Source: an uncultured Anaeromyxobacter sp.
GTDB lineage: Bacteria > Myxococcota > Myxococcia > Myxococcales > Anaeromyxobacteraceae
Length of the DNA stretch: 63,995 nt
Direction: 5' to 3'
Assembly (NCBI GenBank): GCA_903874275.1
Contig: CAIQRS010000062.1
Span: 1-63,995 of the forward strand
The position numbers and the translations under genes were made by a program. Position 1 is the stretch's first letter, and every line of letters begins with the position of its first letter. The notes below the pieces were generated by a model, which worked only from the letters and a program-made list of their open reading frames with translations, was not told where the DNA came from and did not search any database. Below, in pieces: positions 40,130 to 51,619 of the stretch.

Positions 40130-40930
40130 ATGCCACCCATCCGCATCCTCCTCGTCGCCCTGCTCCTCGCGGGCGGATCCGCCACTGCCAGGGACCCCGC
40201 GCCAACCGGTCGCCTCGCGCGGATCCAGGCCGCGGGAGTCCTCAAGGTCTGCATCTGGCCCGACTACCACTCGATCACGTTCCGCAATCCAAAGTCGGGT
40301 GAGTTGTCCGGGATCGACGCCACGCTCTCGGCGGCCTTCGCGAAGGACCTGGGCGTGAAGACAGCCTACGTGGACTCGAGCTTCCCGACCTTCATCGGCG
40401 ACCTCCTGGGCGACCGCTGCGACATCGCCATGTTCGGCGTCGGCATGCTCCCCGAGCGGGCCGCCAAGGTGCGCTTCTCCCAGCCCTACCTCCGATCGGA
40501 CATCTACGCGGTCACCACGAAGACCCATCCCGCCATCAAGTCCTGGGACGACATCGACAGGCCCGGACGGGTGGTGGCCGTGCAGGCCGGGACCTTCATG
40601 GAGCCGGTCATGCGCGCCTGGCTCAAGGAGGCCACGATGCTCTCGGTGCGCCCTCCCGACACCCGCGAACGGGAGGTCCAGTCCGGACGGGCCGACGTCT
40701 TCATGACCGACTACCCGTACAGCCGGCGCGTCCTCGACAACGCCGACTGGGCCCGCGTCATGCCCCCGGAGAAGCCCATCTTCCCGCTCTCCTACGCCTA
40801 CGCGGTGGCCCCCGGAGACGACGCCTGGCTTGCCCGGGTGGACCAGTTCGTCGCCGACGTGAAGCGGGACGGCCGCCTGCTGGCGGCTGCCCGGGCCAGC
40901 AAGCTCGAGCCCATCGTCCTGACCCAGTGA
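40130..40930 (+). CDS. Periplasmic family 3 solute-binding protein
   Basis: 266 residues. The start at 40130 gives a signal peptide (MPPIRILLVALLLAGGSATARD). LARIQAAGVLKVCIWPDYHSITFRNPKSGELSGIDATLSAAFAKDLG is the classic SBP_bac_3 opening; RCDIAMFGVGMLPERAAKVRFSQPYLRSDIYAV and GRVVAVQAGTFMEPVMRAWL continue it. No ABC transporter gene is nearby. Its stop overlaps the start of a membrane hybrid kinase (GTGA), so it more likely acts as a ligand sensor for the kinase than in uptake. Amino acids are the usual ligands. Confidence 0.88.
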   Translation: MPPIRILLVALLLAGGSATARDPAPTGRLARIQAAGVLKVCIWPDYHSITFRNPKSGELSGIDATLSAAFAKDLGVKTAYVDSSFPTFIGDLLGDRCDIAMFGVGMLPERAAKVRFSQPYLRSDIYAVTTKTHPAIKSWDDIDRPGRVVAVQAGTFMEPVMRAWLKEATMLSVRPPDTREREVQSGRADVFMTDYPYSRRVLDNADWARVMPPEKPIFPLSYAYAVAPGDDAWLARVDQFVADVKRDGRLLAAARASKLEPIVLTQ

Positions 40931-43878
40931 CCTCCCCGGCGCCCACGCTGGCGCCCACGCCGGCGCCCACGCCTCCCCCGTCGCCGCGGCGCCGGCTCGT
41001 GGTGGTGGTGCGGCGCGCCTCGCTGACCCTGGCCGCGGTGCTGATCGCGGCCACCGCCGGGCACATGGTGCAACTCTGGCGCGCCATGAAGGAGGACGCC
41101 GAGGCAGACCGGTCCACCTACGCGCGCATCCTCGCCAAGGAGGTGAACCGGAGCCTGGCCGAGGTGGGAACGCAGATGGAGGCCGTGGACGGCCCGGTCC
41201 TGGAGGCCCTGCGGTCCGGGGACCCCGGGGTGGCCGATTCCCTTCTCTCCCAGGAGACCCGGAAGAACAGCCTGCTGCGCGAGCTCGCCGTGGTCTCCCC
41301 CGATGGCCGGGTGCTGGCCTCGTCCAGCCCCACCAGCCGGGGGGTCGTCCTCTCCGGGTACGACTTCCTGGCGTCGCCGCGCGACGGCCGCCTCAAGGTG
41401 GGCGTCCCCAAGGAAGGGCGATCGTTCGCCTCCCGCGGAGCCGGGCGCGAGGGCGAGGAGTTCGCCCGATCCGGATTCCTCACCGTCTCCCGGCACGCAG
41501 AGTCGGGCCCGGACAGTCCGCTGCTCGTCGCGGTGATCGGCGCCGACAGCCTCCTGAACGAGCTGCAGCGCATGGCCGGCGAACCCGAGACCATCACCGT
41601 GATGCGCTACGACGGGGAACTCCTGGCGGCGAGCTCCGAGCAGTTCCTCAGACCGAGCGGCTCGAACCCGATCTTCACCCGCTTCCTCCCGGCCCGGGAG
41701 TCGGCCGCCTTCACCGACGTCTCTGCGGACGGTGAACGGTGGCTCGCCCACTTCGACACGGCCGAGGAGTTCCCGGTGCTGGTCGAGACCCGGATCCCGG
41801 TGGCGACCGTCATCGCCCGCTGGCGCGCCGAGCTGGTCTTCCCCGTCGCCGTGCTCGCCATGGTCCTGGCGGCGGTCTGGGTCTACGCCCGCCTGCTCTC
41901 CCGGTCGCTCCTCCAGCTCGACCGGTCGGCCCGGCTCGCCGAGACCCAGGAGCGGCGCCTGCGCAACATCATCGGCTCGGCCGCCGACGGCATCGTCACC
42001 ATCGACCAGCGCGGGGTGATCCGGGAGTACAACCAGGCCGCCGAGGCCATCTTCCAGATGCCCGCGGGGGAGGCCATCGGCCGCCCCATCGCCGACCTCC
42101 TCCCCCCCGAACTGGCCGACCACCAGGCCTACATCGAGCGCTACCTCTCCACCGGGCAGGCCGTCATCATCGGGCACGGGCGCACGCTCCAGACCCGGCG
42201 CCGCGACGGGACGCCCATGGTGGTGAACCTGGCGGTGAGCGAGGTGATCGACCAGGGGGAGCGCTACTTCACCGGCATCGTCCGCGACGTGACCGAGATC
42301 CGCGAGGCGGAGCAGCGCTTCCGGATCCTCTTCCAGCGCTCCGGCGAGCCGCACCTGCTCTTCGACTCCACCGGGCTCGTGGACTGCAACGACGCCGCGC
42401 TCCGGATCCTGGGCGCAGGATCCCTGGCCGAGATCGTGGGCAGGCGCCTCGAAGACCTGGCGGCGCCGGGCCAGGGCACCGGCTCCTTCGCCTCCGCCGA
42501 GGTCCTCCGGGGCATCGAGGGGGTGGCCCGCCAGGAAGGGGTGGCCCGACTGGAGTGGGCGGCCAGGGCCCTCGACGGCCGCGCCATGCCGGTGGAGATG
42601 ACGCTCACCCCCATCCGGCTCGCCGACCACGACGCCATGCTGGTCTCCTGGCACGACATCGCCGAGCGGCAGCGCTACGAGCAGGAGCTGCGGGGTGCGC
42701 GCGACGAGGCCGAGGCCGCGGCGCTCGCCAAGTCGAGCTTCCTGGCCATGATGAGCCACGAGCTGCGCACCCCCATGACCGGCATGATCGGCATGATCGA
42801 GCTGCTGGCCGACTCCACCGTGTCCCCCGACCAGAAGCGCTTCGTCTCGGCGCTCGACACCTCGGCCAAGTCGCTGCTCCGAGTGCTGAACGACGTCCTC
42901 GACTTCTCCAAGATCGAGGCCGGGCAGCTCCGGCTCGAGGAGGTGGACTTCGACCCGCTCGAGGTCGCGCGCGAGGTGGTCGAGGTCTTCGGCAACGCCG
43001 CCTCGCGCAAGGGGAACGAGATCCGGACCGACTGGGACGCCGCCGCTGTCCCCCGCGTCGCCGGCGATCCCACCCGCCTCCGGCAGCTGCTCTTCAACCT
43101 CGTCGGCAACGCCGTGAAGTTCACCGAGCGTGGGACGATCACCCTGGGCGTCCGGGCCGCCCCGGGCTCCGACGAGGGGTGCGTCGCCCTCCGGTTCGAG
43201 GTGCGTGACACCGGCGTGGGCATCCCGGAAGACGTGCTGCCCATCCTCTTCCGCCCCTTCCAGCAGGCCGACAGCTCCACGACGCGGCGGTTCGGGGGCA
43301 CCGGCCTCGGGCTCGCCATCTGCCGGCGGCTCGCCGAGGCCATGGGCGGGGAGATCGGGGTGGAGAGCCAGCCGGGCAAGGGCTCCACCTTCTGGTTCGA
43401 GCTCCGGATGCAGCGCGCCGCCGCCACGGCGCCCGCGCCGCCGCCCGCGGCCCCGGTGGCCGCGGAGCCACCGGTGAAGCCCATGCGCATCCTGGTCGCC
43501 GAGGACAACGCGGTGAACCGTCTCCTCATCAGCACGCGACTCCGGCGGGCGGGGCACCACGTCGTCCTGGTCGAGGACGGGCTGCAGGCGGTCCAGGCCG
43601 TGCGGGACGGCGCGTTCGACCTCGTCCTCATGGACATGCAGATGCCCGAGCTCGACGGCGCCGGCGCCACCCGGCAGATCCGGCAGCTCCCCGGAGCCCA
43701 GGGGCGCGTGCCCATCGTGGCCCTCACCGCAGACGCGTTGCCCGAGTTCCGGGAGCACTACATGAAGTCCGGGCTCGACGACTACCTGACGAAGCCGGTG
43801 GACTGGGGCGCGCTCGACAAGGTGCTGCAGCGTTTCGCCGGCCCCGTCGAGCGCCCCGCCCGGACGGGCGGGGCGTGA
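40927..43878 (+). CDS. Membrane hybrid histidine kinase with periplasmic sensor, two PAS domains and receiver
   Basis: 983 residues from a GTG overlapping the preceding stop. Pro-rich cytoplasmic tip, transmembrane helix 1 (about 28-47), periplasmic Cache-like sensor (50-300), helix 2 (303-322), PAS (340-455), PAS (462-580), HisKA with His611 in [12 protein letters not shown], HATPase ([25 protein letters not shown]) and receiver with Asp903 ([13 protein letters not shown]). No Hpt domain, so it would need the separate Hpt protein. Coupling to the solute-binding gene suggests the periplasmic domain reads the liganded protein. It ends 4 bp before the convergent RHS gene. Confidence 0.92.
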
Positions 43879-43882
43879 CGGC

Positions 43883-46800
43883 TCACGCCTTGGTGCCGCC
43901 CGATGACGCAAGGGCCTGCGGCGACATCTGCGTTCCCCTCGAGGCATCGATGGCGAGGTTTGGCGGCGAGCTGGCGAGGTTCGACCTCAGAACCACCCCG
44001 GTCTGGCCGCCGACCGAGATCTCGACCCAGTTGGGGTCGGCGGGATCGGTTCGAAGGAAGACGACCGGCTGGCCCGGCGCCAGAAAGGGGCGCCCGGGCA
44101 ACGTCACCTGGTCGGAGCCAGGCGCGGCCCTGCTCAGAAGCTTGGTGTCCTTGCTCTTGATGTAGAGCGTGTCGCCGCTCTTCACGTTTCGCTTGGCCGC
44201 ACACTCCTCGGCAAGGCCTGTCGGGTCGATGAAGTTCACCGGGTCGTTGCCCGCGTACGCGTAGAGGTTGGTGTCCCCTGCGTCGAAGCCGAGCGGGTCC
44301 TTAGAGGTCCATCGGCCGGTGGCCGGATCGTAGTCGCGGGCACCGAAGTGGAGGAGTCCGGTGTCCCGGTCGAGCAACCCTCCGGCGAACCCGAATGGCT
44401 GGAAGCCGGGGTTCGAGTCGAGGACGACCTGCCCGAAGGCGTCGTAGTCGAGCCGCTGCACGACCAATCCGGTGGCAGCGTCCACGGCGAGCCGCGGGCT
44501 TCCCAGGTGGTCGGCGATGATGCGGAAGGTGCCCGTCTGGGAGACGAGGTACTCGGGCGCGTGGCCCCGCGGCCCGTAGACGAACACGCCCTTCACGGCA
44601 CCCGCCCCGTCGAGCCACGCCACGGGACGGAGCTGTCCGTCGTAGAGGAACGCCTCGGTGAGCGCGCCGTTCACCCTCTTCACGACGCGTCGCCCCAGGC
44701 CATCCACGAGGTACTGGAGTTGCCGGCCGTCCGGCAGCACGACCGTCCTGAGCCGGCCATGCGCGTCGTGCTGGAACGAGGTCGTCCCTCCCGGTCCGGC
44801 ACGGGAGAGCAGCGCGCCGGTTGCGCTCCATCCGTAGGAGGTCGATCCCGATGCAACCAGCCGGTCCTGGGCGTCGAAGGTCGCGCTCTCGGTGACGCCA
44901 CCGATCGTGCGAGAGATCCGGTTCCCCTGGCCGTCGTATCCGTAGTCGATGACCGCCCCGTCCACCGAGGCCGACGAGAGACGTCCAGCCGCGTCGTAGG
45001 CGTAGGCGAGGGCCCGCGAGAGGCCCTGCACCGTCTCCGCGACCGTGGTGAGGCGCCCGAGCGTGTCGCGCGTGAGCGTCGCCGCGTAGAGCGCGGTGCC
45101 GCCAGCCGACGCCGAGGCCCCGGAGATCTCGCCGTAGGAACTGTACGCGCCCGTCGTCGTCACCGTCCCGAGCGCGGTCGCGACCGGGTGCCCGGTTGCG
45201 GCGTTCCTGGTCACCGCAAGGTCGCCCGCGCCTATGACCAGGCCATCCGGGTCATAGGTGTACGCCGCCGAGACGCCGCCGACGGTGATGGATGCCGGCC
45301 TGTGCTGGGCGTCGAATATGGTGGCGACGGTTCCGACCACCGCGCCGGACCACGATTGGCTCGCGACCAGGGAACCGTCGTAGCCAGGAGTGGAGGTCAC
45401 CCCGTCCGCTGCAGCGGAGGAAAGCCTGCCAACCGCGTCCCAGGCGTAGAGGGTCGCGCCGTCGGCGCTGGTCATCGAGGTGAGCCGGCCATCGGTGCCC
45501 ACCAGTCCGCCAGTGGGACTCGCGTATCCGAGCACCACGGCGTCACCGTCCGGCAGGTCGATCCGCGTGAGGTTCCGGTCGGCATCCCACGCGTAGGCGG
45601 TCGAGACCGTGCCGGCGTCGCCCACGGGAGGCGGCGTCACGAGGGCGAGCAGGTCGCTCGCCGTCCGGCCGAAGGCGTGTGCACCCCGCCCTGGCGGCGT
45701 CAGCGCCGTGACGTTCCCGGCGGCGTCGTGGGCAATCCCCACGGAACGGCCACCGGGGAGCGCCTCCCCCGTCACCCGTCCCGCGAGGTCCCGGGTGAAG
45801 CCGTAGGCACGTGAGACCGGGTCGACGATCCCGGCCAGCAGGCCGTCCGTGCCGTAGGTCAAGGACGTGGGCCTCGCACCCTCCGCGTACTCCACGACCC
45901 GCCCCTGAGCGTCGTAGGTGAAGGCCATCGCCGCGGAGCCAGCCTGAGCGCTGTTCACGACGCGCCCCTTCTCATCGAGCTGGACCGTGGAGACGCGCCC
46001 CGCCGGAGAGGTCATCGTCCAGGCGCGGGCTGCCGAGTCGTAGGTCTGGTTCCAGGTCTGGCCAGCCTCGGTCACGGTCTCGACGAGCGCCGTGGCGCTC
46101 AGGGGATCGTCGGGATTCGCCAGGGTGGCAGTCCGGGTCGCGGTGACGGTCCTGGCGTTCCCGCCCGGCGTCGTGATGACGGTCTTCGCCGAGACAGGAG
46201 CCGCCATGCCCCATCGCGGATCCGGGCCCCAGGTCACGGACGTGGTGGTTCCGTCCGACGCCGTCGCCAGCGTGGAACCATCGGGCGCGGTGGTCCATGC
46301 GCGTGTCGCGCCGGAGGTCTCCACGACCGTGCGGCCAACGCTCCCATCCGCGAGCCGGACGACCGTGTACCGGTGCGATCGACCGAGAGCCGACGTGGTG
46401 GTGACGGTGTGTCCGCCGGTCACGGCGGCACGTGCCAGCGTCGTCACCGCGCCGTCGGGACCGCGGTCCTCTACAAGACGCCCCGTCGTGTCGTAGGCGA
46501 AGGAATGGGAACGGCCCAGCGGATCGACGAGCCCCTGGAGGAGGCCGCTGGTGGCGCTGGTCATCGTCCAGGCCTCCCCTGCCGGATTCTCCAGGCGGGA
46601 GAGCCAGCCTGCTGCGTCCACGGAGAGCCGGGTGCGCTGGCCGGAGGGCGCGACGATGGCGGTCGGCGCGCTCCCGCTCCGCTCGACGGTCGTGACGTTG
46701 CCGGAGACGTCGGTCACGGTGGCGAGGAAGCCGGCGGCGTCGTAGGCGAAGGAGCGGAGAACGGCACCCGTCGTGGCGTCCCGGGTGCGGAGGTGGCGCC

Positions 46801-49800
46801 CGGCGGAGCTGAAGACGTGCACCTCGCGACCGTCCTCGTCGGAAATGAGGATGTCGGTCGCCGCGCCGTCCGGGAAGGCCGATCGGATGCGGCGGATGGC
46901 GCCGGTCGGCCTGGCTCCCCCCGGGGTCGAGTCCCACGTGCTGCCGACGTAGAGGTTCCGGTCCGGGCCCCAGACCACGTCGGGGATGTCGCTCAAGGGG
47001 CCCATGAAGGCGAGCAGGGCGGGGCCGTCGCCTCCGCTGCCGCCGATGGCAGGGGCTGGCGCGTTGGTGCCGCCGGGGCCGCCGGCGATGGTGGAGATGG
47101 TGCCGTCGGCTCGCACCAACCGGATCCGGAAGGCTTGCTCCCAGCCTTCGCCCCGCAAGGATCCCCAGTTCTGGATGATGGCGAGGTCACCGTCCGGCGA
47201 GAGGCCGATGCCCGAAACCGTCAAGTTAGCGGCCGTGGCCGGCCCGCCGTCCCCCGTGTAGCCCTGCGTGCCATTCCCTGCCACGGTGGTGATGATCCCA
47301 CTCGGCCAGATGCGTCGCACCCGGAAGTTGAACGGGTCGGACAGGTAGACGCTCCCGTCGGACCCGACAGCGATCCCCTGTGCAGCCACGCCAGCGACCG
47401 TGGCCAGGCCGCCATCCCCGCTGCTGACCATGGTCCCGTTCCCGGCGATGGTGGAGATGATTCCGTCCGGCCCGACCCTGCGAACGCGGTAGCGGCTGGA
47501 ACCCTCGGTGAAGAAGATGGCCCCGTCCCGCCCCACGGCGAGCGCCAGGGGCGAGATCAAGGCCAGGTTCGCCGGCCCGCCGTCGCCGCTGCCCGGCCTG
47601 ACGTATTCCGGCACGGAGTCCCTGCCTGCCACCGCCACTCCACTGGAGAGGTCGGGCGCGAGGCGAACGACGCACATGTTGGCGCAGCCGTAGCCGCTGA
47701 GCGGACTGGCGATGGCGTAGACCGAGCCGTCGGGACCGACAACGGGGGTCCTCGCGTCGGGAACCCGGTTCCCCGGCCCGTTCACGAGGGAGAAGGCCGT
47801 GAGGTCCTTCAGGCCTGAAAGCCCTCCCATGTCGGAGGGTCTTTTGGTGGCCACGTAGAGCATGCCGTCGTGCCCGAACGCCAGGTTGCCCGTGAACCTG
47901 ATGCCGGAGGACCCGCCCCCGATGATCTCCGTGTACGGATAGTTCACGTCGGCGGCCAGCGTCGTCTCGACGACCGGCGGCAGCGCATCGGCCTCCCGCC
48001 TGCGCCCGTCTCCGTAGAGGATCCGGTGGCCGGCCGGGTCGTAGGCGTGGTGGACGGAGAGCGCCCAGCCTCCCAGGCCGTTGCCGGCCGCGCTCCACCG
48101 GCGGACGGACGTCGTGTACTCCTGCCAGAGCGTGATCTCCGCGCTGGCCCGGTCCCGGGAATAGACGATCCCGTTTCCGTTCATGCCGAAGCGCTCGGTG
48201 ACCATGCGCGTGAGGCTGTAGACGTAGCCGATGCGGACGTTCACCGGCTGGGCGCCCCAGGCGTCGCGGCCGTAGACGTCCTTCCCGTCGAAGTCGAACG
48301 GCTGGGAGAGGCTCGCGGAGGCCGGGTGGCTCCAGGCGAACGCCCGCCCGGCCACACGCACCTCGAGCACGATCCGCCTCAGGCTGGGTGGGATTCCGGC
48401 GCCGCTGAGCGGGATCTCGAGGTGGCTGTCGCTACGGAAGCCCGGCGTCCGGTCGCTCCGGTGATGGATCCGCCACGGCGTCCCGACGATGGGGAACGAT
48501 TCCCCAAGTGTCTGGGTCTCGCAGCCTATGACCGAACCGCACTCCTCGCTGGGATCGGCCACCGGCGGGGCCTGCTCCGTCGGTACCGATGGCACGACCG
48601 CGTCGGCCGGCGGACCACCGGACCAGTTGAGGTCCATCGGGGAGAAATGGGATGTCCGGACGCGCCAGAGCGACTGGCCCGCCAAGTACAGCGAGCCCAG
48701 GGCCTGCCGCTCCTCGAGGTCGATTCCGAGCGCCAGGAGGGCCGCCGGGCCTGCCGCGGTCCCGCTCGCGTCCACCACGACGTCGGCGATGCCCCCGGTG
48801 ACGCCGAGGATGGAGAGGACCACGCCGCTGTCCTCCGCCTTCCAGAGGCCGTCCGACCGGTCGTACCAGCCCACCGGGACGGCAGTGCCGGCAGGGAAGT
48901 CGAGGAAGTTCTCGACATAGTGGACGACCGGCTTCGAGAAGGTCACGTGGCTCGCACCCGCCGCGATCGCCTCGTCGGCGGAGTTCTCCACCGCATAGGT
49001 GTACACGCTCGTCGGTGGGAGGACCCCGGGCATCGCGTCGGGACCGGTCGGACCGACCGTGTACTCGGTGGACCGGACGTGAAGGACCGGTGCCGGCGCC
49101 GTCGTGCCGTTGGGGAGGAGCAGGGTAGCGGAGGTGCCGGCGGCGAAGAGGAGCGTGGACTGGCGCGGCCCTCTCGCGTCGGTGGACACGGTTCCGCGGG
49201 CGATCTGCAGGACGCCGGCCCCGGAGGAGACCGGGGACACGACGGGGTCGAGCGCCACGAGGACCATGTCGGGGACGTCGGTGAACTGGGCCCAGGGAGC
49301 GACCACCCGCCGCTGGGACGGAAGGTAGGCCTCGGCCACCACGTCCACGACCAGCGCGCCGCCGCCGTTCACGGCCATGTCGTAGCGACCATCGGCACGG
49401 GAGAGCGTCTCGCCGAGTTCCGGATGGCCGAGTACGACCACCGAAGCGCCCGGGATGGGCGCGCCGTCACGGGTCTTCACCACGCCCCGGAGAACGGCGG
49501 CCCGGGCGGGGACGATGGTTCCCGCGACCACGCCGGTCTGGATGGGGTTCGGCCCCTGGTACAGGAAGGAGGTCGAGGTGGCGAGGTTGGTGGCCACGCC
49601 GGAGGAGACGGGCGAGGCTACCGTGGCCGGGTCGGGCGGCAGCGCGCCGGTGGGCGGGGGGCCGGAGGAGATGACCAGGTCCACCGGGAAGAGGGCGAGC
49701 ACGATCTCGCCAGCGGCGGGGTTCTGGGAGATCACGCTGCCGGACGGGATGGTGGCCGAGGTGGCCGTCGTCACTGCGCCCACGAGCAGGCCGGCGGCGA

Positions 49801-50389
49801 TGAGCGCCGCCTCGGCCTGGGCCTGGGTGAGCCCCACGACGGAGGGAGCCACAATCGTGGAAGGGCCGGTCGAGACGACGAGGGCCACGGCGGAGCCGGG
49901 CGCGACCGACGCGCCTGCCGCCGGGTCCTGGCTGATGACGCTGCCGGCCGGAACGGTGGCGCTGCTCGCCGTCGTCACCGTTCCCAGTGCGAGGCCGACG
50001 CCGGTGAGAGCGCTCGTGGCCGCCGCCTGCGTGAGCCCGACCACGCCCGGAACGGTCACGGTCGCCGGTGGTGGAATGCCGGTAGAGACGACGAGAGCGA
50101 CCGCCGATCCGGGCGCCACCGACACGCCTGCCGCCGGGTCCTGGCTGACGACGCTGCCGGCGGGAACCGTGGCGCTGCTGGCCGTCGTCACCGCTCCCAG
50201 GGTGAGACCGGCACCGGCGAGAGCCGTCGTGGCCGCCGCCTGGGTGAGCCCGACCACGCTCGGGACGGTCACCGGAGGCGGGGAATTGCCCGTCGATTCA
50301 CCGGCGGAACCACCGCTGCAAGACGCGGCGAGGAGAGCCCCCGCGAGAAGGAGGAGACCCCGTGTGGACAGGTGGACCAGGTGGCGCAT
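43883..50389 (-). CDS. Giant surface lipoprotein: PASTA x3, NHL-like repeats, RHS/YD repeats, SH3-like tail
   Basis: 2168 residues with a strong ribosome site (GGAGG). The lipoprotein signal has lipobox Cys24 (LLAASC). Three PASTA-like domains lie at 40-104, 111-174 and 181-243, the first two nearly identical. A carboxypeptidase-regulatory-like domain follows near 300-375, then a region with teneurin-style NHL motifs (GDGGPA) at about 880-1140, and a long YD-repeat shell to about 1990. The RHS core motif ([20 protein letters not shown], then [19 protein letters not shown]) ends near 2060. The last 108 residues look like an SH3-like domain rather than a known toxin. No immunity gene follows. 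Confidence 0.9.
49868..50272 (-). repeat. Near-identical tandem PASTA-encoding repeats
   Basis: Two copies of about 195 bp (50078-50272 and 49868-50059), separated by an IPPPAT linker, encode almost the same domain ([21 protein letters not shown] versus [21 protein letters not shown]). The DNA is also close to identical, which points to recent duplication or gene conversion. A third, diverged copy lies at 49661-49849. Confidence 0.85.
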
Positions 50390-50894: not shown

Positions 50895-51314
50895 CTACGT
50901 CTTGCGCTTCTCCTCGACTTCCCGGGCGAGCTCCTCGAGCTTGGCCTGCCCGGCTGTCTCCGCGTCGACCTTCTTCTCGTCGCTGGCCTTGCCGGTGAAG
51001 TGCGCGGCGCCAGGGGCCCAGCCTGGGGTGATGGTCGCGCCCAGGTCCTGGGCGGAGCGGCTGAACATCTTGCCGACCGGGCTCAGCACGGCCTTCCCCG
51101 TCATGTAGAGGCCGATGAAGGGGAGGAAGACGACCATGAGGCCGCCGAGCACCGGCATGAGCGCCAGGGCCGCAGCCGTCGGGACCTGCACGTAGTGCTC
51201 GGACGCGGGGCCGGGAAGCGTCTGGCCGTCGCGAGCGATCGGGAAGATCTCCCAGTTGCTCTTCGAGAGGTAGTAGCCACCCTTCACTGCGCTGCCGCCG
51301 TCGATGGTCTTCAT
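50895..51314 (-). CDS. Hypothetical small membrane protein
   Basis: 139 residues from the ATG at 51314, with ribosome site GGGGA. The longer frame upstream is Arg-rich and unsupported. The N-terminal 40 residues are polar (KGGYYLSKSNWEIFPIARDGQ); one or two membrane segments follow (PTAAALALMPVLGGLMVVFLPFIGLYMTGKAVL, about 48-80); the C-terminus is a charged helix (AKLEELAREVEEKRKT). Not recognised; no neighbouring gene gives a role. Confidence 0.65.
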   Translation of the reverse strand: MKTIDGGSAVKGGYYLSKSNWEIFPIARDGQTLPGPASEHYVQVPTAAALALMPVLGGLMVVFLPFIGLYMTGKAVLSPVGKMFSRSAQDLGATITPGWAPGAAHFTGKASDEKKVDAETAGQAKLEELAREVEEKRKT

Positions 51315-51619
51315 GGTCCGTTCCCCTTTCTGAAGAGGACTGTGCCCCATCCTGCGGGCGGCCGATATTGGGAGAGGTCCGGATCGGGCCGGCATTGATC
51401 CCGGTCTCGCCCTCGGGAAAACACCCGAACCCGGATGGGGCGCCTGCCTCCGGTCCGTCGATCGAGGGACGTGGCCAGGGCCTGAAGGCGTCCTGCCTAC
51501 ACTCGCAGTCCATGTTTCCGCGACCCTCGATCCCACGTGGGCTGGTCGCGGGGCTTTCTGCGTCCTGCGCCGGGGCGCAAGGATGTGTCGGACGCTGGAC
51601 GAGGCCGTGAGGGTGCGCA
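51315..51619. other. Divergent intergenic region, nothing recognised
   Basis: 305 bp between two divergent genes. It should hold both promoters, but no clear -35/-10 pair, sigma-54 element, repeat or small gene was seen. Confidence 0.4.

What the first reader, a model, noticed from the sequence alone, without database searches (positions are those of the whole stretch)
43883..50389. Lipoprotein joining PASTA domains to a teneurin-like RHS shell, without a toxin or immunity gene
PASTA domains usually bind peptidoglycan in PBPs and PrkC-type kinases. Here three of them follow a lipobox and lead into NHL-like repeats and a full YD shell with an intact RHS core motif. The tail past the cleavage region is an SH3-like domain, not a recognisable toxin, and the next gene is convergent, so no immunity gene follows. 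It may be an adhesive or wall-binding cage rather than a toxin carrier.
Basis: partly seen in the sequence, partly recalled or inferred. Interest (0 to 1): 0.65.

Follow-up and report, generated by a model that had tools for sequence, protein, structure and literature searches.

The report
Bacterial teneurin-like protein without recognisable toxin
This is a bacterial relative of the animal nerve-wiring protein teneurin, a cage-shaped protein tethered to the cell surface; its relatives usually carry a toxin in the cage, but this one carries what looks like a small cell-wall-binding domain and has no antidote gene beside it.

Summary
Window 43883-50389 (-) is one intact 2168-aa gene: lipobox, three PASTA domains, TTR, a conserved TIP-position region, FN-plug, NHL, YD-shell, intact RHS core, then a 108-aa tail. 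The next gene is a convergent histidine kinase 4 bp away. The architecture is that of bacterial teneurin-like proteins (TLPs), described in 2026 as lipid-anchored polymorphic toxins with changeable N-terminal adhesion modules and changeable C-terminal toxins, so the cage is not new. PASTA is one of those modules (8 of 83 TLP N-termini surveyed). The unusual part is the tail. It models confidently as a bacterial SH3b domain, best matched by SH3b domains of wall hydrolases. It is homologous to the front part of a secreted protein kept in most Myxococcaceae-like genomes, in an operon with a CHASE2-cyclase and an M48 protease. The helical rear part is missing, and the tail ends where the kinase begins. 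No other surveyed tail is like it, and no immunity gene is adjacent. Most likely the toxin was replaced by a captured wall-binding domain, giving a display or wall-binding TLP; a crippled toxin carrier or an unrecognised effector remain possible.

The parts
43883..50389 (-). Teneurin-like protein (TLP) gene, 2168 aa
   Evidence: ribosome-binding site GGAGGAGG upstream and GC3 0.85-0.91 along the body
50318..50389 (-). Lipoprotein signal peptide, residues 1-24 (LLAASC, lipidated Cys24)
   Evidence: read from the translation; lipobox-like N-termini also in most relatives with a complete start
49667..50272 (-). Three PASTA domains, residues 40-241; units 1 and 2 are an 87% identical 213-bp tandem duplication
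   Evidence: Pfam PF03793; tandem repeat
49262..49507 (-). Teneurin TTR-like domain, residues 295-376
   Evidence: Pfam PF25020, E 2.4e-18
48590..49261 (-). Conserved region between TTR and FN-plug, residues 377-600, at the position of the TIP domain
   Evidence: alignment A1 with eight relatives, 43-51% identity over the whole TTR to FN-plug stretch; TIP position from PMC13018210
48215..48541 (-). FN-plug with the conserved Gly618-Ser619 pair, residues 617-725
   Evidence: Pfam PF24329, sub-threshold E 1.1e-4; Gly-Ser kept in 8 of 9 rows of A1; cleavage at Gly|Ser shown in BiTLP (PMC13018210)
46850..47593 (-). NHL propeller: assigned part, residues 933-1180 (the propeller probably starts earlier)
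   Evidence: Pfam PF25021, E 5.2e-10
44213..46849 (-). YD-shell and RHS core, residues 1181-2059, with GRW...DPLG...DPTGL
   Evidence: Pfam PF25023 and PF05593; NCBIfam TIGR03696; motif positions 2025, 2031 and 2055
43886..44212 (-). C-terminal tail after the predicted cleavage, residues 2060-2168: SH3b fold (about 2070-2141) plus a disordered end
   Evidence: AF2 with a 22-row alignment, pLDDT about 90 over the SH3b core; 4krt Z 9.8, rmsd 1.4, 65 aligned; homology to a standalone secreted protein, E to 5e-17
40927..43878 (+). Convergent PAS hybrid histidine kinase: occupies the place where an immunity gene would be expected
   Evidence: Pfam; orthologues 68-71% identical in two congeners; synteny up to its 3' end

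Best explanation
It is a bacterial teneurin-like protein in which the C-terminal toxin has been replaced by a captured, non-enzymatic SH3b domain. Shown here: the domain order, the intact RHS core motif, the SH3b fold of the tail (by prediction), its homology to a secreted envelope protein of related bacteria, its truncation relative to that protein, and the lack of an adjacent immunity gene. Inferred: the protein is exported as a lipoprotein and held on the outer membrane by Cys24; the PASTA units act as a stalk or peptidoglycan-binding module; the FN-plug and NHL close the YD-shell; the RHS core cuts the chain after DPTGL2059; and the SH3b domain is kept in or released from the shell to bind cell wall or another surface ligand instead of killing. 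Without a toxin no immunity gene is needed.
For: TLP domains in order. The tail is SH3b, closest to SH3b domains of endolysin, NlpC/P60 and LytB wall hydrolases, with no catalytic domain and no toxin-family match. The tail's relatives are standalone genes in 89 other genomes of the phylum, none in an RHS-length frame; those read out carry a signal peptide. In the loci examined the standalone gene lies between a CHASE2-cyclase and an M48 protease gene. No immunity gene: the kinase stop is 4 bp away. Tails are exchangeable in the family: 53 tails fall into 37 clusters, while the 400 aa before them align in all 53 with median 46% identity.
Against: TLP tails with experimental data include toxins (PMC13018210), and an SH3-like fold does not prove harmlessness. 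The intact RHS core predicts that the tail is still cut and packed like a toxin. Immunity could lie elsewhere in the genome. The tail stops abruptly where the neighbouring gene starts, which also fits a broken carrier. No second TLP with this tail was found to show that the combination is kept by selection.
Confidence: 0.5

Rival explanations
1. A crippled toxin carrier: the gene once had a full tail and an immunity gene; recombination or deletion up to the histidine kinase removed both, leaving a partial SH3b tail and a shell with no function or only a residual one.
For: The tail lacks the helical rear half of its standalone relatives and ends 4 bp from the kinase stop. Synteny with a congener holds up to the kinase 3' end and breaks at this gene. 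No significant remnant of the missing part follows the stop.
Against: The 2168-codon frame, ribosome-binding site, RHS core residues and codon bias are intact, and the SH3b core still folds in prediction with pLDDT about 90.
Confidence: 0.25
2. A real but unrecognised effector: the SH3b tail is the cargo, acting on a target's envelope (for example by occupying peptidoglycan or a periplasmic partner), with immunity encoded elsewhere or not needed.
For: TLP architecture, intact RHS core and a tail in the usual size range (about 11 kDa here; TLP average about 15 kDa, PMC13018210). Immunity genes need not be adjacent, and 20 of 47 surveyed TLPs lack an adjacent same-strand ORF by my criterion.
Against: The tail's relatives are secreted proteins kept as single genes in most genomes of a neighbouring family, in an operon with a protease and a cyclase; no catalytic domain is present.
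Confidence: 0.2
3. A lipoprotein carrier like SitA of Myxococcus, moved to neighbours by outer-membrane exchange.
For: A lipobox in this protein and most of its relatives with a complete start; SitA toxins are lipoproteins delivered this way (PMC5562445, PMC8546572; abstracts).
Against: No sequence relation was tested, SitA carries no YD-shell as far as I know (own knowledge), and TraA/TraB were not looked for in this genome.
Confidence: 0.05

Closest known systems
Bacterial teneurin-like proteins (TLPs; BiTLP of Bacillus inaquosorum, MfTLP of Methylosarcina fibrata; PMC13018210)
   Same: TTR, a domain in the TIP position, FN-plug, NHL, YD-shell, RHS core cleavage motif, SPII signal as in Myxococcota TLPs, changeable N- and C-terminal modules
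   Different: Tail is SH3b rather than a recognised toxin or OMP-like domain; no gene immediately downstream on the same strand; PASTA and SH3 are not mentioned in the paper's main text
Metazoan teneurins
   Same: TTR-FN-plug-NHL-YD-shell order
   Different: Lipoprotein anchor and PASTA instead of a transmembrane helix and EGF repeats; RHS cleavage motif present; no ABD or Tox-GHH
SH3b accessory domains of wall hydrolases (4krt phage endolysin, NlpC/P60 enzymes, LytB)
   Same: SH3b fold, Z 7.8-9.8
   Different: 12-14% identity; no hydrolase domain attached; no Pfam SH3 match
Standalone secreted SH3b protein of the CHASE2-cyclase / M48 protease operon in Myxococcaceae-like genomes
   Same: 27-47% identity over nearly the whole tail
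   Different: Own signal peptide and a helical C-terminal half that the TLP tail lacks
SitA lipoprotein toxins (PMC5562445)
   Same: Lipoprotein with exchangeable C-terminus in myxobacteria
   Different: No relation tested; no immunity gene found here

Membership tests
Bacterial teneurin-like protein (TLP) | YD-shell | tested here: met
   PF25023 E 5.4e-37, over cut-off
Bacterial teneurin-like protein (TLP) | NHL propeller | tested here: met
   PF25021 E 5.2e-10, over cut-off
Bacterial teneurin-like protein (TLP) | FN-plug | tested here: inconclusive
   PF24329 E 1.1e-4, 22.8 bits against a cut-off of 27.8; right position, conserved in the relatives
Bacterial teneurin-like protein (TLP) | TTR followed by a TIP insertion before the FN-plug (96% of TLPs have TIP) | tested here: inconclusive
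   TTR met; a conserved domain lies at the TIP position but was not compared with a published TIP sequence or structure
Bacterial teneurin-like protein (TLP) | RHS core cleavage motif (two DPxG motifs and a conserved Arg) | tested here: met
   [10 protein letters not shown]...DPTGL at 2025-2059
Bacterial teneurin-like protein (TLP) | SPII (lipoprotein) signal as in Myxococcota members | tested here: met
   LLAASC ending at Cys24, Arg2 and Arg10 in the N-region, read by eye; no signal-peptide predictor was run
Polymorphic toxin-immunity system | Variable C-terminal domain on a conserved carrier | tested here: met
   53 tails in 37 clusters against a core aligning in all 53 at median 46% identity
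Polymorphic toxin-immunity system | Immunity gene immediately downstream | tested here: not met
   Convergent kinase 4 bp away
Polymorphic toxin-immunity system | Toxic C-terminal domain | not testable with these tools
   No match to a toxin family; toxicity needs an experiment
Bacterial SH3b domain (tail) | SH3b fold | tested here: met
   AF2 core pLDDT about 90; Z 9.8, rmsd 1.4, 65 residues aligned to 4krt; Foldseek best E only 5.4e-3
Bacterial SH3b domain (tail) | Sequence match to an SH3 profile | tested here: not met
   No SH3 family in Pfam at E up to 1; PDB profile search best E 0.16, an SH3 domain. Membership by sequence is therefore not claimed, only the fold
PASTA domain | PF03793 over its gathering cut-off | tested here: met
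   141.5 bits against 23.2, three copies
SitA-type outer-membrane-exchanged toxin | Delivery through TraA/TraB | not tested
   TraA/TraB were not searched for

The most novel reading that the evidence does not exclude
Some bacterial teneurin-like proteins have given up toxin delivery and use the cage to display or hold a wall-binding domain, a bacterial parallel to the change from toxin to adhesion receptor in animals. This protein would be one caught with a captured SH3b domain in place of the toxin and with no immunity gene.
Probability: 0.35. Interest if true: 0.7.

Novelty: new variant of a known kind. Interest (0 to 1): 0.42.

Why it matters
Teneurins are thought to come from bacterial cage toxins that became adhesion receptors. 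A bacterial member that seems to have swapped its toxin for a wall-binding domain, with no antidote gene, would show such a change of use within bacteria and can be tested by expression and binding assays. It also warns that a teneurin-like shell in a genome is not by itself evidence of a toxin.

Tried and rejected
Single-sequence AlphaFold of the tail was useless (pLDDT 38.5), so the model with a 22-row alignment was used. Relatives of the core end plus tail in viral contigs, and of the tail in plasmids: none. PASTA-plus-RHS elsewhere in the phylum: the other long PASTA frames opened (L172-L174) do not look like RHS proteins, but PASTA does occur before the TTR block in 8 of 83 TLPs from a wider survey. 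Remnants of the missing tail half beyond the stop: none significant (best E 0.039 within the kinase gene and 0.006 inside the TLP itself, none continuing the tail). Idea that the multi-copy gene upstream (50895-51442) is the immunity gene: rejected because it occurs in many copies in all four genomes of the genus, including those without a full-length TLP found. The second TLP's downstream gene was not resolved. Counting adjacent same-strand ORFs as a proxy for immunity genes (27 of 47 against 8.6 in shuffles) is crude in high-GC genomes and gives fewer positives than the 'almost all' of PMC13018210.

Full report
Observation. The window holds one intact gene at 43883-50389 on the minus strand, 2168 aa, with a strong ribosome-binding site before its ATG and typical codon bias throughout. 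Pfam finds three PASTA domains, a teneurin TTR domain, a teneurin NHL domain, RHS repeats and a teneurin YD-shell, all above their cut-offs, and a sub-threshold FN-plug between TTR and NHL; NCBIfam adds the Rhs core domain at 1982-2059. The chain begins with a lipoprotein signal (LLAASC). PASTA units 1 and 2 are an 87% identical tandem duplication.

What family. The order TTR, TIP, FN-plug, NHL, YD-shell, RHS core is that of bacterial teneurin-like proteins, TLPs (PMC13018210, Nat Commun 2026, read). That paper reports that Myxococcota TLPs carry SPII signals, that N-termini hold exchangeable adhesion domains, that C-terminal domains are short, highly variable and in several tested cases toxic, and that an additional gene lies immediately downstream of almost all TLPs. 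The window's genome is a draft of 5.07 Mb in 285 contigs; one relative from the same family (G012) lies on a contig of the same length, 7149 bp, as one titled Anaeromyxobacter sp. RBG_16_69_14, so the source is probably an unnamed Anaeromyxobacteraceae. The genome has a second TLP (G000:C258, locus L008) with a different N-terminus and a Gly-rich tail. The TTR to FN-plug part matches in 11 of 60 related genomes, its own included and three of them only weak partial matches; the eight relatives aligned are 43-51% identical to it over that part.

N-terminus. Among 83 TLP N-termini, from a scan of named genomes plus the order's own members, PKD and Ig-like modules are commonest and PASTA occurs in 8. 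The eight are from Methylobacter (two), Methylovulum psychrotolerans, a Methylococcaceae genome, and delta-, beta- and gammaproteobacterial genomes; in each the last PASTA unit lies just before the TTR block. The PASTA-to-RHS order is therefore recurrent, not unique, and PASTA-bearing TLPs have other kinds of tail.

Tail. After the conserved DPTGL2059 the chain continues for 109 residues. Pfam, NCBIfam and PHROGs give no family over cut-off. A phylum-wide search gives matches in 90 of 195 genomes, E down to 5e-17 and mostly 27-47% identity over nearly the whole tail; apart from this gene, the frames are shorter than an RHS protein. The proteins read out have a signal peptide, the same SH3-like part, and then a helical-looking rear half which the TLP tail lacks. 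In the loci examined the gene sits between a CHASE2-cyclase gene and an M48 protease gene, in two cases overlapping the protease gene by 4 bp. No relative of the tail was found in other genomes of the window's own family. With these relatives as alignment, AlphaFold2 gives an SH3-type barrel at pLDDT about 90 (residues about 2070-2141); the best structural matches are SH3b domains of an endolysin, NlpC/P60 enzymes and LytB, Z 7.8-9.8. Foldseek's own E-values are weak (best 5.4e-3). Among 53 TLP tails surveyed there are 37 clusters, and this tail is alone in its cluster, while the preceding 400 residues align in all 53.

No immunity gene. The next gene is a hybrid histidine kinase on the other strand whose stop codon is 4 bp from the TLP stop. 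It is a real gene: orthologues of 68-71% identity exist in two congeners. With one congener, DNA is collinear from about 34.0 to 43.84 kb, up to the kinase's 3' end, and then stops matching; genes on the other side of the TLP are scattered over different contigs in the genus. The TLP thus lies at a breakpoint. In the survey, 27 of 47 TLPs have a same-strand ORF of 80 aa or more starting within -30 to +60 of the stop, against 8.6 in shuffled sequence; 20 do not, this one included. Lack of an adjacent same-strand ORF is thus seen elsewhere, for instance in six of ten TLPs that share one Gly-rich tail type.

Interpretation. Shown: TLP architecture, an SH3b-like tail homologous to a secreted protein, absence of that protein's rear half, and no adjacent immunity gene. 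Inferred: a toxin tail was replaced by a captured wall-binding domain; the protein is an anchored, PASTA-stalked shell that displays or releases SH3b. I give this 0.5. A crippled toxin carrier (0.25) fits the breakpoint and the abrupt tail end. An unrecognised effector (0.2) fits the intact RHS core. Membership: TLP by shell, NHL, TTR and RHS core, with FN-plug and TIP inconclusive by profile; polymorphic toxin-immunity system not established, because the adjacent immunity gene was tested and not met and toxicity cannot be tested here.

Novelty. The cage, lipid anchor and exchangeable N-terminal module belong to a described family; the SH3b cargo without immunity gene is a variant that I have not seen described (one search found no paper with both 'PASTA domain' and 'teneurin'; absence from that library is weak evidence).

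Noticed in passing
L008:4708-11286 (G000:C258): Second TLP in the same genome, 2192 aa, lipobox, cysteine-rich N-terminus, Gly-rich tail; 52% identical to this one over TTR to FN-plug.
   Followed up: partly
Tails of L008, L081, L082, L086, L103, L120, L127, L136, L139, L141: One Gly-rich tail type (FCIGGSVYAGVGGG-like) recurs in TLPs of Myxococcota, Bacillota and other phyla; six of the ten lack an adjacent same-strand ORF by my criterion, so this may be another class of TLP without immunity gene.
   Followed up: partly
L145:9668-15730 (C-terminal 128 aa): TLP tail that by eye resembles a FecR-like domain (ITGRKTRLIVDLPDGSTLRMG); the tail itself was not profile-tested.
   Followed up: no
window 50895-51442 (-): Small membrane-protein-like gene upstream that is repeated in many copies (about 76-84% identity) in all genomes of the genus searched.
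   Followed up: partly
L154, L156, L158 (Myxococcaceae-like genomes): Conserved gene row CHASE2-cyclase, secreted SH3b protein, M48 protease; no Pfam or NCBIfam family for the SH3b protein.
   Followed up: partly
L026 and L028 tails (G027): Two TLPs of one genome whose tails look by eye distantly alike (an HGxxxG-like strand and a later Cys-containing strand), possibly peptidase-like; they do not cluster by BLAST.
   Followed up: no
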